Shown here piece after piece: positions 57,356 through 63,087 of a DNA stretch of 64,000 nt. The translations under genes and the position numbers were made by a program. The DNA lies in contig NC_013947.1 of NCBI RefSeq assembly GCF_000024545.1, positions 2,542,001 to 2,606,000 of the forward strand, in the 5' to 3' direction. This DNA is from Stackebrandtia nassauensis DSM 44728. Its GTDB lineage: Bacteria > Actinomycetota > Actinomycetes > Mycobacteriales > Micromonosporaceae. Numbering within the stretch: position 1 is the stretch's first letter; each line of letters opens with the position of its first letter. The notes beneath the pieces were generated by a model. That model had not been told where the DNA came from. It did not search any database and saw nothing but the letters and a program-made list of their open reading frames with translations.

Positions 57356-58627
57356 TCATTCGACGGTTGCAACCCGGAAGGCGCACAGCTCGGCGAGCAG
57401 CTCCCGGCAGTGCTCGCGCTCGGGTTCGCCGACGGCGTCCAGCAGCTCGGCGACCGTCGCCGGGGTGGCGTTCGCGTCGAGCCGGTCCAGCAGCGCGGTG
57501 ATCGCCTTCGGCGACGGTCGGGCCGAGGCGGTGTGGCCGTTGCCCGAGCACAGCGCGGTGGCGTCGTCAGCCCGGGCCCACAGCACGGTCGCGCCGGGCG
57601 CGCGCCGCAGCCGGGTGGCGTCGGTCAGCTCCGGCCGGGGCACGGGATCGGGAACCGGACGGAAGCCCCCGGCGGTGTACCGGTTCAGGGTCACCGCCAG
57701 TCGGCGCTCACCCTCCCAGGACCGCTCCAGCAGGGACACCGCTTGGTCCATGCCCTGCCGCAGCGCGAGCGGGAGGCCGGTGGCGGCGTCGGCCGGATCG
57801 ACGAAGGGATCGACGTCGATCGGCGGCATCCGGGTTTCCAGGTAAGCGTCGGGGTCGGTCAGGGCCGAGGCGGGAAGGTCGGTGAGCAGGTCGGTCATCT
57901 CGAACTCCACCCGGCGGCCCTCGCGCGGCACACCCACGTTGACGCTGGTCGCCGGTTCGCTGCCGACGGTCTCGCCGACGTGGAAGTGACTGGCGGGCCA
58001 GTACATCAGCTGACCGGGCCCGGCCTCGGCGGCGATCGAGGTGTCGAGGTAGCGCGCGTAGTCGAGGATGGTGCTGGCGTCGTGGGACCAGGGACGGTGG
58101 GGCCACATCCGCATCCGTTTGCGTCCGGACAGGACGTACATGAAAGTGCCGAACCGATCCTTGTGGACTCCCACCGGGGAGTGCTCGTAGTTTCCGTGGA
58201 ACAGCGTGGTGATGGCGCTCGTCATCGGCAAACCGACCCGTTCCCACAGCGGATGGAAGAAGGCGCGCTGCCGGTCCCACATGTCGGGGTTGTGCGGATG
58301 GAACCCGGCGATGACCAGCGCGTGCCTCTCGCCGTCGAGCGCCGTGGTGACCCGCGCCGCGTAGGAGTCGAAGTCGGTGTCCGACGCGCACGGGACCCGG
58401 CCCCGCGCCGTCAGCAGTCGCCTGCCCTCGCAGGTCAGCCGGACGATGTCGGGGATGACGTCGGCGGCACCGGGTGCGCTGGCGGTGATCGCCGCGCTCA
58501 GCGCCTCCTCGGCGAGGAACGGTGCCCGCGGGACCCGGCGGTACAGAACCGGCGCCCGATCCCAGTACTTCTCGGCGAACACGTCCCAGTCGAGAGTGTC
58601 CTCGACGGCGACGGAGGTTTCGGTCAT
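57356..58627 (-). CDS. JmjC/cupin oxygenase with intact iron ligands
   Basis: 423 residues from the ATG at 58627 (GAGGAG 6 bases upstream); the longer upstream frame lies inside the neighbouring gene. The JmjC-type core carries His155-x-Asp157 (VGVHKDRFGTF) and the second-strand histidine in YWPASHFHVGE (214/216), the 2-His-1-carboxylate iron triad. The C-terminal 80 residues look like a small helical winged domain (ITALLDRLDANATP). Such enzymes use Fe(II) and 2-oxoglutarate for hydroxylation or demethylation. As last gene of the RiPP-like operon it probably oxidises the peptide. Confidence 0.82.
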   Translation of the reverse strand: MTETSVAVEDTLDWDVFAEKYWDRAPVLYRRVPRAPFLAEEALSAAITASAPGAADVIPDIVRLTCEGRRLLTARGRVPCASDTDFDSYAARVTTALDGERHALVIAGFHPHNPDMWDRQRAFFHPLWERVGLPMTSAITTLFHGNYEHSPVGVHKDRFGTFMYVLSGRKRMRMWPHRPWSHDASTILDYARYLDTSIAAEAGPGQLMYWPASHFHVGETVGSEPATSVNVGVPREGRRVEFEMTDLLTDLPASALTDPDAYLETRMPPIDVDPFVDPADAATGLPLALRQGMDQAVSLLERSWEGERRLAVTLNRYTAGGFRPVPDPVPRPELTDATRLRRAPGATVLWARADDATALCSGNGHTASARPSPKAITALLDRLDANATPATVAELLDAVGEPEREHCRELLAELCAFRVATVE

Positions 58628-59766
58628 GGTGTCTCCTCGACGATCTCGATGGCACGCAGTTCGCGCAACCGGTCCAGCAGCGGCCCGGCGCCGTTGTCCT
58701 GGCCGTCGGCGTCCCGGCACAGTTCGGCCACCTCGACCGAATCGTTGCCGCGCAACCGATCCAGCACCAATCCCGGTGTCGGCCCGGCCACACTGAAGGC
58801 CATACCGTTGACCGCCCACAGTTGCTGGTCCGGTTCCTCGCCGGGCAGCACCAGCACCGGGACGCGCGCCCGCACCCGCTGTTCGAGACGCAGCGGTGGT
58901 GGTTCGGCGGGGTCGGGAACCGGATCGAGACCCGCCGCGCTGGCCCGGCCCGCCCACCACACCCGGCTGAGCCGTTCGGCCTCGGCGCGGTAGTCCGCGC
59001 GATGCGGAGGTCGTTGCGGGGCAACGGTTTCAGCGGGGAGCTTGAGTTCCTCGCCGTCTGTCGGTGGTGGGAAGGACAGTTCGGGCACCGGTTCGTCCAG
59101 TTCGGCGGCCTCGGCGGCGACGACCCGGCTGATCAGCCTCACCGCGTCGGCGGTGGGCAGTCGCCGGTCGACGGGGATCCGCAGCCGCAGCGACAGACTC
59201 GCCGTCGAGGAGCGCAGCGCGGCGGTTCCCGCCGCCGGAATCCGCACCACATCCCCTTCGGACAGTTCCTGCTCGGTTCCGTCGTCCAGCAGTGTTACGC
59301 GTCCGTCCAGCACGAACACCAGGTTCAGGTGGGACGCCTCGGATTCGCACAACCCGACGTCACCGGCGGCGACGATCAACTCGGAGGCCACCGGCAGGAC
59401 GGGCATGCCCACGATCGACCACAGTGGCGTCAGTTGCTCGCGGACCCGGTGCCACAGCCGATAGTCGGTGAACAGCGGCTCGACGGCCCGCAGCCGCCAG
59501 TTCGCCGCCCGCGACGACAGCCGGTCCCGGTAGCCGTCGAGGTCGGAATCGCCGGACGACGGCAGCCGGTCACCCGGCGCGGATATCAGCTCGCCGTCGG
59601 CGTCGAAACTCACCGAGGGCAGCGCGTAGTGCCGCATTCCCCGCAGGTACGGCTCGCAGGCGGTGCGCAGCACCGTGAAGGCGAGCCCGGGGTCCACCGC
59701 CGGTCGCGCGTGCGATTCCACCGCGCAGCCGTGGTTCCAGTTCGCGGCGATTGTCGTCCAGGTCAT
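58624..59766 (-). CDS. JmjC/cupin paralogue with lost iron ligands
   Basis: 380 residues, overlapping the next gene by four bases (ATGA). Architecture matches its downstream neighbour over the full length, including the LDRLRELRAIEIVEE-like C-terminus. In the core, the strand that should read H-x-D reads VGLCESEASHLNLVFVL, and the second-histidine region reads VVRIPAAGTAALRS, so all three iron ligands appear absent. It is best read as a non-catalytic partner that binds substrate or forms a heterodimer. AGGA-type GGAG overlaps the stop of the dehydratase gene. Confidence 0.8.
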   Translation of the reverse strand: MTWTTIAANWNHGCAVESHARPAVDPGLAFTVLRTACEPYLRGMRHYALPSVSFDADGELISAPGDRLPSSGDSDLDGYRDRLSSRAANWRLRAVEPLFTDYRLWHRVREQLTPLWSIVGMPVLPVASELIVAAGDVGLCESEASHLNLVFVLDGRVTLLDDGTEQELSEGDVVRIPAAGTAALRSSTASLSLRLRIPVDRRLPTADAVRLISRVVAAEAAELDEPVPELSFPPPTDGEELKLPAETVAPQRPPHRADYRAEAERLSRVWWAGRASAAGLDPVPDPAEPPPLRLEQRVRARVPVLVLPGEEPDQQLWAVNGMAFSVAGPTPGLVLDRLRGNDSVEVAELCRDADGQDNGAGPLLDRLRELRAIEIVEETP

Positions 59767-59778
59767 GAGGCGGCTCCA

Positions 59779-62082
59779 TCACTGTGGTTGGCGGGTCGGC
59801 GTCGCGGGGTCGAAACGGTCGCGTATCCGTCGCGTGTATTCGTCGAGACTGGACAGCCCCATCGCGGCCCGGGCGGCGTCGACGCCCTCCGGATCGGCCA
59901 GCGGGCAGGGCACCAGTTCGCCGTCGCGGCGTTCGAACTTCGTGCCGTAACGCTGCGGGACTCCCTCGGCCAGGCACAGCGAATCGGTCACGTAGGCCAC
60001 ATCCGGCAGCTCGGCCCGGCCGTCGAGGGCGGCGGCCTCCAGTTCTCGCAGGCAGCGACGCCGGAACTCAAGCGCCCCGTCGACGTGCTGCAACAGCCGG
60101 ACGGCCCCGGCGGCGGCCTCGGTGCCGACCATCTCGGCCGTCGGCCAGCCGTGTTCGTCCACAACGGTCTCCAGCCACGCGATGGCCTCGGCGCCCAGTT
60201 CCGACAGTTGCGCCTCCAGCTCGGTGTCCGACCGGCCACCATCCACCCAGGACGATCGCAGCACCGCGTCGGCGTCGTCGATGCGGCACAGCCGTTCGGC
60301 GATCTCGTCGAGCGGTTCGGGTTCGGTGAGCTCGGCGACCTTGACGCGATTGGTCTCGGCGTCCCAGGAGTAGATCAGCCGGGCGTCGAATTCCGGCCAG
60401 TCGACGGCGACTTCGCTGGCGCCGACACGAACCCCGGCGGCGCGAGGCAAAGCCGGTGTCGCGGCGTAGTCCAGCGCACCCCGAAGCGTCATGCCCAGCC
60501 CGCCCAGGTCCCAGTCGGCGACCGGCGGCCACTCGGTCGCCAGCTGGTCATCGGTCAGCTTGGGATCGTCGACCGGTCCATCGATGGTGGACATTCGATC
60601 GTCACCGATGGCGGCGAAGTAGTACGGCACGTCACCGGCATCGAGCTGGCCGCGCTCGGACTCGGCGAGATCGGACGGCAGCGGTGCGTTCGCCAGCAGC
60701 CGATCGGCCAGCGTCGTGTAGTAGTCACCGGTGTCGCGGGGCAGCACCCGGGCGAACACGCCGTCGCGGTGCTCACGCGCGAACGCGCCGATCTCGTCCC
60801 GGTCCCGGCACAGGACCGCCCACAGGTCGAAGGCGCCGCGTACGAAGTGCGGCAGGTAGGGGCCGTAACCGAACCGACCGGCGGCATCGGACACGACGGT
60901 GTCGGTGACGCTTCTCGCCCAGGACCGCCGCGACCGCACCAGCTCCAGGCCCTCGTCGGTCTGCCGGAAACAGACCGGCAAGGCGTCCACGCCACACAGT
61001 CGCGGCCGGTTCTCGAAGCCGACATGGTGGTGCGGACCGGATTCGGCGGTCAGGCCGGTCTGGAACAGATGGTCGACCGGCCGCCCGAACACCTCAACAT
61101 CCACAATGTAATGGCGCGTTCCGGTTTCGCCCGCGCGCCGTCCGGCCAGCAGGTTCCCATCGATCAGGTCCGCGATACCGAAGGCCATGGCCGCAGCGAC
61201 AAGGGCCCCGGCGCGACTCCACAACTCGGGACAGTCCGACTCCGCCACGACCGGCCCGGACACCGTCAGGCCGTGTTCGCGGTGGATCGGCCGCCGGGGT
61301 GCGGCTTCGATCCATTCCTGCCACAACCGACTGTCGACGCCCTCGCCGCGCCGCTGACACCGCAGCGTCGGCAACTCGATCTCGGGGCGGTTCGTCAACC
61401 GGTTGAGCAGCGCGAACACCGAGTCCGGGACTTCGCCTCCGGTGTCGGCGGTCAGGAACAGCGCCTCGCCGCACGCCGGACGGGCCTTGTACGCCACCGC
61501 CGTCCCGTCGGCACTGACCAGCCGCAGCACCCGGCGACCGGCGTTGTGCGTCTCGTCGCCATGCGCGGTCAGCTCCACGATGCGACCGGACGCCCCAAAG
61601 TACCGATCCAGATCCCCGCGCCACTCGGTGCACAGCCGGGCCAGGAACACATCGAGGTGCGTCAGCCAGTCGGCGATCCGGCGGCGGCAGAACGCGTCCA
61701 GGTCCGGCAGCCTGTCGGCCGCGCACACCGTGAACAGCTCGGTGAAGACCGCGCCGAACAGCCCGTCGTTGTCGAGGCTCAGCACCTCCGGGTCGATGAC
61801 ATCGGCGTTTCGGGCACCTGCCCGCTCGCACCAACGGGTCGCGGCATCCAGGGCGTCCACCAGCGGAGCGAACGCCGGAGCCGACAACGCGGCGGCCAAC
61901 ACCGTCGCGTCGGCTTCCCCCGACAACCGCCGGACCTGTGACACGTGGGTCCCGACCTCGGCGGCCACCGGCGGGAACAGCCCGCCCCGGCGGCCGTGTG
62001 ACACCGCCTCGACGACCTGGTTCGCGGTGGCGCCCAACGGGTTCGCCGAACCCGGCGCGGGCCGCCAGCTGAGATTGTCCAT
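59779..62082 (-). CDS. LanM-type dehydratase-like protein (DUF4135) with DUF6624-like tail
   Basis: 767 residues from the ATG at 62082, with AGGAG 5 bases upstream; an in-frame GTG at 62112 has none. Residues about 90-500 match the lanthipeptide dehydratase: GDETHNAGRR (176/179), AYKARP (Lys199), DLIDGN (305-310), VDVE (328) and LPRDTGDYY (449-). The catalytic-loop DLHxEN is DLIDGN, so the usual histidine is Ile307. No LanC cyclase domain follows. Instead residues about 590-755 resemble DUF6624 (EHGWPTAEMVG, VPQRYGTKF). Likely a kinase/lyase dehydrating Ser/Thr of the adjacent peptides. Confidence 0.78.
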   Translation of the reverse strand: MDNLSWRPAPGSANPLGATANQVVEAVSHGRRGGLFPPVAAEVGTHVSQVRRLSGEADATVLAAALSAPAFAPLVDALDAATRWCERAGARNADVIDPEVLSLDNDGLFGAVFTELFTVCAADRLPDLDAFCRRRIADWLTHLDVFLARLCTEWRGDLDRYFGASGRIVELTAHGDETHNAGRRVLRLVSADGTAVAYKARPACGEALFLTADTGGEVPDSVFALLNRLTNRPEIELPTLRCQRRGEGVDSRLWQEWIEAAPRRPIHREHGLTVSGPVVAESDCPELWSRAGALVAAAMAFGIADLIDGNLLAGRRAGETGTRHYIVDVEVFGRPVDHLFQTGLTAESGPHHHVGFENRPRLCGVDALPVCFRQTDEGLELVRSRRSWARSVTDTVVSDAAGRFGYGPYLPHFVRGAFDLWAVLCRDRDEIGAFAREHRDGVFARVLPRDTGDYYTTLADRLLANAPLPSDLAESERGQLDAGDVPYYFAAIGDDRMSTIDGPVDDPKLTDDQLATEWPPVADWDLGGLGMTLRGALDYAATPALPRAAGVRVGASEVAVDWPEFDARLIYSWDAETNRVKVAELTEPEPLDEIAERLCRIDDADAVLRSSWVDGGRSDTELEAQLSELGAEAIAWLETVVDEHGWPTAEMVGTEAAAGAVRLLQHVDGALEFRRRCLRELEAAALDGRAELPDVAYVTDSLCLAEGVPQRYGTKFERRDGELVPCPLADPEGVDAARAAMGLSSLDEYTRRIRDRFDPATPTRQPQ

Positions 62083-62124
62083 ATCGCTCCTATGGCCGCC
62101 GGTATCCGTCACGGCGGGGGAGAG

Positions 62125-62169
62125 GTCCCTTCCCGGGAGGCGGAGAGGTTGTTCGTCCCGGGAAGGGAC
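62125..62169 (-). terminator. 14-bp perfect hairpin between precursor genes and the dehydratase
   Basis: GTCCCTTCCCGGGA (62125-62138) pairs with 62156-62169 over a 17-base loop, starting 6 bases after the second precursor stop and ending 43 bases before the dehydratase start. No T tract follows on the minus strand. It could attenuate transcription or protect the precursor mRNA end, giving more peptide than enzyme. Confidence 0.65.
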
Positions 62170-62175
62170 GGTTCA

Positions 62176-62292
62176 CTACGGAGCGCAGTAAGCGGCGGCG
62201 GTGCAGGTGGCGCGCGACGGCTTCGTCGCGGGACGCTTGCGTTCGACGGCGCCCAGCATCGACTCCAGCTTGGCCTTGTTCGACTGCTTCAC
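62176..62292 (-). CDS. Putative RiPP precursor peptide 2 (38 residues)
   Basis: Starts with GTG at 62292; GGAGG (62299-62303 region) lies 6-7 bases upstream. Sequence: VKQSN, then KAKLESMLGAVER, KRPATKPSRAT, and CTAAAYCAP at the C-terminus. The KAKLESMLGAVER block and PATKP are shared with precursor 1, 22 bases upstream in the operon. The conserved leader with a variable tail that keeps a CT(x)n-YC frame is the pattern of a modified peptide: Thr after the first Cys can be dehydrated, and two Cys are available for rings. Family unknown to me. Confidence 0.8.
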   Translation of the reverse strand: MKQSNKAKLESMLGAVERKRPATKPSRATCTAAAYCAP

Positions 62293-62314
62293 GTTGTCCT
62301 CCAGTCGGGTGGGA

Positions 62315-62428
62315 TCAGACGCAGTAGATGCGCGTGCAGCTCGATTTCGCGGGCTTGGTCGCGGGAACCCTGCGCTCGACGGCGCCGAGCATCGACTCCA
62401 GCTTCGCCTTGGACTTCTTCTTCTCCAT
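62315..62428 (-). CDS. Putative RiPP precursor peptide 1 (37 residues)
   Basis: ATG at 62428 with GGAGG 5-6 bases upstream. Sequence: MEKKKS, KAKLESMLGAVER, RVPATKPAKSS, and CTRIYCV. The leader (13 residues identical to precursor 2) is predicted helical and may bind the dehydratase or the JmjC pair. The tail has Ser29, Ser30, Thr32 and Cys31, Cys36 as possible modification sites. Both peptides lie upstream of the dehydratase and cupin genes on the same strand. Too short for standard gene finders. Confidence 0.82.
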   Translation of the reverse strand: MEKKKSKAKLESMLGAVERRVPATKPAKSSCTRIYCV

Positions 62429-62607: not shown

Positions 62608-63087
62608 TCAGGCCGTTTCGGCTGCTCGAATCCGCGCCAGCACCCGGTCGGCCACCGAGCGCAGGGTGTCGATCTCCTCATCGGACAGATGGTCGACGAA
62701 GTATCGCCGCACCGCCGCGACGTGGCCGGGAGCGGCCATCTCGATGGCCTCGCGTCCGGCCGGGGTCAGGCGGGCCATGGTGCCCCGGGCGTCCTCGTCG
62801 CAGTCCTCGCGCACGATCAGGCCCCGCTGTTCCATGCGGCGCAGCTGGTGGGCCAGGCGGCTGCGGTCCCATTTGGCCTCGGTGCGCAGTTCCCGGGCTC
62901 GCAGTCGGCCGTCGGGGGACTCCGACAGCGGCACCAGGATCGCGTAGTCCGCGCCCGACAGGCCGGAGTCCCGGGCGAGTTCGCGATCCAGTGCGGAGGT
63001 CAGGTCGATGTGCATCTGGCGCCAGGTGCGCCACAGGCACTGTTCGCGGTCATCCAGCCAGCGGGGGTCGGTCATGATCACCACCAT
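62608..63087 (-). CDS. MarR-family regulator
   Basis: 159 residues from the ATG at 63087, or 155 from the ATG at 63075. The winged-helix MarR core spans residues about 35-120 (LRTEAKWDRSRLAHQLRRMEQRGLI and TPAGREAIE). It is divergent from yceI, and two near-identical 18-bp operators lie in the 83-base gap. It probably represses both until a phenolic, oxidant or other ligand binds. Its start region touches the first operator closely. Confidence 0.88.
   Translation of the reverse strand: MVVIMTDPRWLDDREQCLWRTWRQMHIDLTSALDRELARDSGLSGADYAILVPLSESPDGRLRARELRTEAKWDRSRLAHQLRRMEQRGLIVREDCDEDARGTMARLTPAGREAIEMAAPGHVAAVRRYFVDHLSDEEIDTLRSVADRVLARIRAAETA

What the first reader, a model, noticed from the sequence alone, without database searches (positions are those of the whole stretch)
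57356..62428. Undescribed-looking RiPP operon: twin mini-peptides, LanM-like dehydratase without cyclase, JmjC pair
Seen: two 37-38-residue ORFs with shared leader and CT..YC tails, a DUF4135 dehydratase-like protein with no LanC domain, then two JmjC/cupin paralogues, all on one strand with tight spacing. Known: DUF4135 domains dehydrate Ser/Thr in lanthipeptide synthesis; JmjC/cupin enzymes hydroxylate with iron and 2-oxoglutarate. I recall no characterised class with this set. Inference: Thr/Ser dehydration, Cys ring closure and oxidation of the core.
Basis: partly seen in the sequence, partly recalled or inferred. Interest (0 to 1): 0.92.

Follow-up and report, generated by a model that had tools for sequence, protein, structure and literature searches.

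The report
New dehydratase-oxygenase modified peptide gene cluster
A small bacterial gene set, two tiny peptides plus a lanthipeptide-type dehydrating enzyme of unusual build and an iron-oxygenase pair, recurs intact in distant relatives and looks like an uncharacterised way of making modified peptides.

Summary
On the minus strand lie two precursor peptides (A1, A2), a dehydratase (E), a degenerate cupin (J2) and a JmjC oxygenase (J1). E has a LanM-type DUF4135 domain keeping seven of nine studied CylM catalytic residues, an eighth as Glu for Asp. I found 30 loci with an E relative (one a second locus in the same genome); 29 have E-J2-J1 in that order and a precursor just upstream. All 35 precursors end in [S/T]-C-x(3-5)-Y-C, though the scan required neither S/T nor Y; the motif was absent from antisense and downstream controls. 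J1 keeps its iron triad; J2 has lost it. In one clade a separate LanC follows J1, exactly where precursors carry two more cysteines. Best reading: a lanthipeptide-like RiPP pathway that dehydrates the invariant Ser/Thr, probably closes a thioether with a Cys, and oxidises the core. The chemistry, the oxygenase target and the role of DUF6624 are inferred, not shown. My literature searches found no described system with this set. New variant of a known kind.

The parts
62315..62428 (-). A1 precursor peptide, 37 aa, core SSCTRIYCV
   Evidence: ORF with GGAGG site; family motif [ST]C-x-YC in 34 of 34 precursors of the first 28 triad loci
62176..62292 (-). A2 precursor peptide, 38 aa, GTG start, core ATCTAAAYCAP
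62125..62169 (-). Strong hairpin with 14-bp arms between A2 and E, probably setting the precursor:enzyme ratio (inference)
   Evidence: z -3.8 against mononucleotide shuffles; z below -2 in 17 of 28 loci at the same place
59779..62112 (-). E: LanM-type dehydratase (DUF4135) fused to DUF6624, no LanC domain; likelier start ATG 62082
58624..59766 (-). J2: cupin/JmjC paralogue without the metal triad; presumed inactive partner or leader-binding protein
57356..58627 (-). J1: JmjC_2 2OG/Fe(II) oxygenase with C-terminal winged-helix-like domain; ATG overlaps the J2 stop

Best explanation
The five genes are a minimal, lanthipeptide-like RiPP pathway. The leader (roughly [L/V]D-x-V-[L/I]-G-x-[L/V]-E-x-E-x-P) recruits the enzymes, probably through the winged-helix (RRE-like) domains of J1/J2 or through E itself. 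E phosphorylates the one invariant Ser/Thr, just before the first Cys, and eliminates phosphate to give Dha/Dhb. A Cys, most simply the last one, adds to it to form a (methyl)lanthionine ring; in most lineages this happens without a dedicated LanC (spontaneously, or helped by E/DUF6624), while one clade has a LanC together with two more Cys. J1, with J2 as inactive partner, oxidises the core; the invariant Tyr, or the Cys next to it, is the likeliest site. Shown: gene set, synteny, motif, catalytic residues. Inferred: the reactions, their order, and the product.
For: E-J2-J1 plus precursor in 28 of 29 E-homologous loci from genome searches (for the loci; 22, 59 for J2 and J1; 52, 77 for precursors) and in a 30th, Nonomuraea gerenzanensis, found afterwards. 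Precursor motif 34 of 34, controls 0. CylM-equivalent residues over 27 sequences: H254, K274, D347, N352, D364 and R506 identical in 27 of 27; T512 in 26, Ser in 1; D252 is Glu in 27 of 27 (roles from passages of PMC4550811). Foldseek puts CylM (E 1.8e-4) and LicM2 (E 4.9e-3) first. J1 triad 14 of 14; nearest solved relatives, weakly, are ribosomal protein hydroxylases. A LanC follows J1 in 13 of 28 triad loci and a LanC profile finds none in the fetched stretches of the other 15; all 14 precursors of the 13 LanC loci have two extra Cys and 0 of 20 precursors of the other 15 loci do. In 151 genomes the J1 profile at E<=1e-12 hits only triad loci (9 genomes; 11 candidates scored per genome at most).
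Against: No chemistry is shown. The CylM H349 position is not conserved (His in 2 of 27), though CylM H349A keeps activity. The LanC/extra-Cys link is one clade, so one evolutionary event. The LanC-less majority has no obvious cyclase. No transporter or protease recurs as a shared neighbour in the 15 stretches compared. The E model is moderate (mean pLDDT 54, TM to CylM only 0.21) and the J1 model poor (41).
Confidence: 0.7

Rival explanations
1. Dehydration happens but no thioether forms in the LanC-less majority: the two Cys make a disulfide (or stay free, or bind a metal) and the product is a Dha/Dhb-containing, oxidised peptide; lanthionine rings exist only in the LanC clade.
For: 15 of 28 triad loci show no LanC in the fetched stretch; two Cys are always kept; extra Cys occur exactly with LanC.
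Against: Cyclisation without a dedicated LanC is reported for class V lanthipeptides (passages of PMC12328550), so absence of LanC does not exclude rings. DUF6624 could assist.
Confidence: 0.3
2. E works downstream of J1: J1 beta-hydroxylates the invariant Tyr (as its ribosomal-hydroxylase relatives do to Arg or His; recalled), and E phosphorylates and eliminates that new hydroxyl to give dehydrotyrosine, to which a Cys may add.
For: Tyr is invariant and never Phe or Trp (34 of 34); J1 is as strictly retained as E.
Against: Ser/Thr before the first Cys is equally invariant and is the normal LanM substrate; no precedent known to me.
Confidence: 0.1
3. E is only a peptide kinase or a scaffold, and the product is a phosphorylated, hydroxylated signalling or metal-binding peptide.
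For: No exporter or protease recurs (15 stretches); the H349 position has changed.
Against: The elimination residues R506 and T512 are kept in 27 of 27 and 26 of 27; the LanC clade implies dehydro residues.
Confidence: 0.1
4. Not a peptide pathway: the small ORFs are chance and the enzymes act on another substrate.
For: None found.
Against: Precursors in 29 of 29 triad loci with the strict motif; controls 0.
Confidence: 0.02

Closest known systems
Class II lanthipeptide synthetases (LanM, e.g. CylM, LicM2)
   Same: DUF4135 lipid-kinase-type dehydratase with matching phosphorylation and elimination residues
   Different: No LanC domain; DUF6624 instead; far below the TIGR03897 cut-off (22.4 against 304 bits); short precursors (about 37-60 aa, starts guessed) with a TC..YC core; a JmjC pair beside it in 29 of 30 loci
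Dehydrazoles (CcaM, LanMbC; PMC10676384)
   Same: DUF4135 dehydratase in an unusual RiPP context
   Different: There DUF4135 is fused to a zinc-free class III cyclase domain and paired with YcaO (passages); E has no such domain and no YcaO was seen among the eight window proteins scanned
Class V lanthipeptides (LanK/LanY, some without LanC)
   Same: Ring formation reported with or without a dedicated LanC (passages of PMC12328550)
   Different: Dehydration there uses separate LanK kinase and LanY lyase; here a single LanM-type domain
JmjC oxygenases in RiPP pathways (BipG of biphenomycin, PMC12707348)
   Same: JmjC 2OG/Fe enzyme hydroxylating a precursor peptide (passages)
   Different: The gene list in that passage names no LanM-type enzyme and no second JmjC; the target there is ornithine
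Graspetide clusters with DUF6624 (groups 18, 20, 23, 42; PMC13097080)
   Same: DUF6624 in RiPP clusters, flagged there as a possible undiscovered enzyme class (passage)
   Different: Those clusters have a graspetide synthetase; DUF4135 does not occur in that paper's text

Membership tests
Class II lanthipeptide synthetase (LanM) | DUF4135 dehydratase with catalytic residues | tested here: met
   H349 position not conserved, D252 is Glu
Class II lanthipeptide synthetase (LanM) | Fused zinc-dependent LanC-like cyclase domain | tested here: not met
   No PF05147 in E; only DUF4135 and DUF6624 in 13 of 13 aligned sequences
Class II lanthipeptide synthetase (LanM) | Score above the NCBIfam TIGR03897 cut-off | tested here: not met
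   22.4 against 304 bits for the window protein
Lanthipeptide | Precursor with leader and Ser/Thr plus Cys core, beside the enzyme | tested here: met
Lanthipeptide | (Methyl)lanthionine in the product | not testable with these tools
   Needs MS or NMR
Dehydrazole | DUF4135 fused to a class III-type cyclase domain | tested here: not met
   No such domain in E
Dehydrazole | YcaO partner in the cluster | tested here: inconclusive
   None among the eight window proteins scanned; YcaO was not searched for across the loci
Class V lanthipeptide | Separate LanK kinase and LanY lyase | tested here: not met
   The operon's enzymes are E, J2 and J1; one DUF4135 protein holds both residue sets. LanK/LanY models themselves were not searched
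Graspetide | ATP-grasp graspetide synthetase in the cluster | tested here: not met
   No ATP-grasp hit in the operon proteins
JmjC 2OG/Fe(II) oxygenase (J1) | HxD...H metal triad in a JmjC domain | tested here: met
   H155, D157, H216 in 14 of 14; PF08007 matched by 14 of 14 at E<=0.01, the window protein (17.3 bits) below the curated cut-off of 22
JmjC 2OG/Fe(II) oxygenase (J2) | HxD...H metal triad | tested here: not met
   0 of 14 rows have H and D at the J1 columns, 2 of 14 the distal His; stray HxD strings elsewhere in 6 of 14
RRE-containing RiPP enzyme | beta3-alpha3 winged-helix leader-binding domain | tested here: inconclusive
   J1 C-terminus predicted as strands then three helices, but the model is poor; 1 of 14 hits ROXA-like_wH at 0.0037

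The most novel reading that the evidence does not exclude
A RiPP class of its own in which DUF6624, fused to a LanM-type dehydratase, is a catalytic domain that replaces LanC (closing the ring on the Dha/Dhb before the first Cys), a JmjC/pseudo-JmjC pair oxidises the invariant Tyr or Cys, and a true LanC was added only once, later, with two more cysteines. The separate DUF6624 proteins would then be a wider family of RiPP enzymes.
Probability: 0.22. Interest if true: 0.88.

Novelty: new variant of a known kind. Interest (0 to 1): 0.7.

Why it matters
It gives a compact, easily cloned system (peptide plus three enzymes) in which one can ask how LanM-type dehydration works without its own cyclase, what DUF6624 does (also reported in graspetide clusters), and how a JmjC enzyme and its inactive twin act on a RiPP. 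The clade that has a LanC together with two more Cys is a natural experiment on how ring-forming enzymes are recruited. The short, invariant TC...YC core makes the family easy to mine.

Tried and rejected
Chance small ORFs: rejected by the control scan. Ordinary class II lanthipeptide synthetase: rejected because E lacks LanC and scores far below TIGR03897. LanC supplied in trans in the window's genome: possible but unsupported; the two LanC hits similar to the operon LanC sit beside class I LanB genes, one is part of an ordinary LanM, one is a 417-aa LanC-like protein whose neighbours I did not scan, and two weaker hits (near 557 kb and 631 kb) were not examined. An exporter, protease or regulator as part of the module: none recurs in three or more of the 15 stretches compared (ORFs of 100 aa or more). 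The 14 Streptomyces-like stretches were not in that comparison. Single loci do have such neighbours, e.g. an M28-family peptidase protein upstream in L003; gene calling was crude. J1 structure: model too poor to search with. Fold of DUF6624: predicted mostly helical with good local confidence, but only generic helical-repeat and designed matches appeared in a second look limited to Foldseek's own hits; this shows neither a known nor a new fold. J2-J1 without E: one genome, G589, where J1 by eye lacks the HxD residues, read as a remnant. L045: a DUF4135 protein without DUF6624, J2, J1 or a precursor found, counted as the one exception. L044: E lies in pieces (apparently frameshifted), and so do the LanC matches of L044 and L080; L044 is kept in the synteny and precursor counts but left out of the E alignment and tree. 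L006's precursor was missed by the first leader pattern and caught by the wider one. L005 is from a metagenome-assembled genome of Lysobacterales, so its host is less sure. L040's J1 ORF is short and lacks the C-terminal domain. In L106 three upstream ORFs fit the bare Cys pattern and one has the motif. Promoter scan: nothing. PHROGs: no hit. Literature: searches in an open-access library (the tool states that no bioRxiv preprints are held and most subscription journals are missing) gave no paper describing this set; publication elsewhere is possible.

Full report
WHAT IS THERE. The window lies at G000:C1:2542001-2606000 of a single-contig 6,841,557-base genome, by length probably Stackebrandtia nassauensis (recalled). 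On the minus strand, in order: A1 (62428-62315), A2 (62292-62176), a hairpin with 14-bp arms (62169-62125), E (62112-59779, likelier start 62082), J2 (59766-58624) and J1 (58627-57356), the last two overlapping by four bases. A MarR-type regulator lies upstream on the same strand and a beta-N-acetylglucosaminidase is convergent downstream; neither recurs in the 15 stretches compared.

THE OXYGENASE PAIR. J1 has the JmjC triad H155-x-D157...H216 in 14 of 14 aligned sequences; its nearest solved relatives by profile, weakly, are the ribosomal L16 arginine hydroxylase (2.9e-5) and NO66 (0.01). J2 is a paralogue (cross-matches). In a joint alignment 0 of 14 J2 rows have His and Asp at the J1 metal columns and 2 of 14 have the distal His. 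The J1 C-terminus looks winged-helix-like (strands then three helices in a poor model; 1 of 14 members hits ROXA-like_wH weakly). PMC12710340 (passage) reports RRE-like folds fused to JmjC domains of the same Pfam family in fish and algae, with bacterial homologues in RiPP-like contexts, so a leader-binding role is plausible but untested.

CONSERVATION. E relatives with the DUF4135 part were found at 29 loci by genome searches: 2 in this genome, 3 in named genome contigs (two Streptomyces, one Lysobacterales MAG), 10 in relatives (most other matches there are DUF6624 alone), 2 in a class sample (3 of 394 genomes with a match, own included) and 12 more in the genus of one of these (13 of 392). 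A family search (8 of 354, own included) added none, and a phylum sample (1 of 198) found only the own genome. So the module is rare and patchy. Of these 29, 28 have J2 and J1 directly downstream; the exception, L045, is a shorter DUF4135 protein without DUF6624. A 30th, in Nonomuraea gerenzanensis, was found later and also has the triad. Pairwise distances of E, J1 and J2 correlate at 0.975-0.987 over 27 loci (351 pairs, not independent). A J1 profile in 151 genomes hit only triad loci, 9 genomes. In 101 genomes of the second genus a J2 profile hit 3: two triads and one J2-J1 pair without E whose J1 by eye lacks HxD.

THE PRECURSORS. I first saw the peptides by eye, then wrote a scan of up to 2.5 kb upstream of E for ORFs ending in two nearby Cys and holding a loose leader pattern. 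It gave 34 peptides in 28 of 28 triad loci. All 34 end [ST]C-x-YC-x(1-4) (Thr 23, Ser 11), although the scan asked for neither S/T nor Y. The spacer is 3-5; the one 6 printed (L060) becomes 3 if its inner SC is taken. They fall into 20 groups at 60 percent identity over the last 30 residues. With the same scan on the antisense strand, and on both strands downstream, the loose pattern gave 2, 2 and 2 hits and the strict motif 0. Many have GGAG-type sites before the start, judged by eye. The Nonomuraea locus adds a 35th with the motif. Right after the last precursor stop many loci have a hairpin whose sequence differs between lineages; z is below -2 in 17 of 28 and positive in 2 (mononucleotide shuffles, so approximate). 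Such hairpins between a peptide gene and its enzymes are common in lantibiotic operons (recalled).

THE LANC CLADE. In 13 of 28 triad loci a LanC-like protein follows J1 (Pfam PF05147 tested on one); a LanC profile finds none in the fetched stretches of the other 15. The zinc motifs WCYG and CHG are both present in 11 of the 13; the other two are broken into pieces and were read only as fragments (L044 neither, L080 CHG only). These 13 loci are the ones whose 14 precursors carry two extra Cys; the 20 precursors of the 15 LanC-less loci have none. The LanC loci form one clade on the E tree (SH-aLRT 93, one change, L044 left out), so this is one event. The Nonomuraea locus, not used in finding the pattern, has both LanC and four Cys. 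This supports dehydro residues as the product of E, and suggests that the LanC-less form does not depend on a dedicated LanC.

MECHANISM. Most likely: leader binding; phosphorylation and elimination at the invariant Ser/Thr; Cys addition giving a (methyl)lanthionine ring (spontaneous or E-assisted; LanC-catalysed in one clade); oxidation of the core by J1 with J2 as inactive partner, at the invariant Tyr or neighbouring Cys. Anatomy and conservation are shown; each chemical step is inferred. My confidence is about 0.95 that this is a RiPP pathway, 0.75 for dehydration, 0.5 for a thioether in the LanC-less form, and 0.6 for oxidation of the core by J1.

KNOWN OR NOT. E is not a class II lanthipeptide synthetase by the usual definition (no LanC, far below TIGR03897), nor a dehydrazole-type fusion, nor is the operon class V (no separate kinase and lyase). 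Ten library searches found no description of the combination. Papers were seen as search listings, and as passages only for PMC13097080, PMC10676384, PMC12710340, PMC4550811, PMC12707348 and PMC12328550. I rate it a new variant of a known kind, with a real chance that the chemistry is new.

Noticed in passing
G000:C1:3588066-3592773 (L006:7929-12714): A second, about 40 percent identical copy of the whole module with its own precursor (core KGTCAGFYCLPPS) in the same genome; a PhyH-family oxygenase protein follows on the same strand at L006:13032-14936.
   Followed up: partly
L006:4910-7414 and L041:4540-5985: NB-ARC (AAA/TPR) regulator-like proteins near two of the loci, matching each other.
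   Followed up: no
L105:7793-10218: J2-J1 pair without E or a precursor seen, in a genome of the genus of G341; J1 by eye has lost its HxD residues, as if decaying.
   Followed up: partly
L043:3817-5646: An FAD/NAD-binding protein (PF13454) overlaps the end of J1 by four bases and may be an extra tailoring enzyme there.
   Followed up: no
L016-L035: Other DUF6624 proteins, mostly short, are common in relatives and share the QHAD (a few MHAD), DR and GTQ motifs; function unknown.
   Followed up: partly
L081, L082, L083 (own genome): The genome also holds an ordinary LanM with LanC and two LanB genes with LanC beside them.
   Followed up: no
L044 (G121:C53): The E gene and the LanC gene lie in several frames, apparently frameshifted, while the precursor ORF is open.
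   Followed up: no
window 62608-63087: A MarR-type regulator directly upstream on the same strand could control the operon.
   Followed up: no
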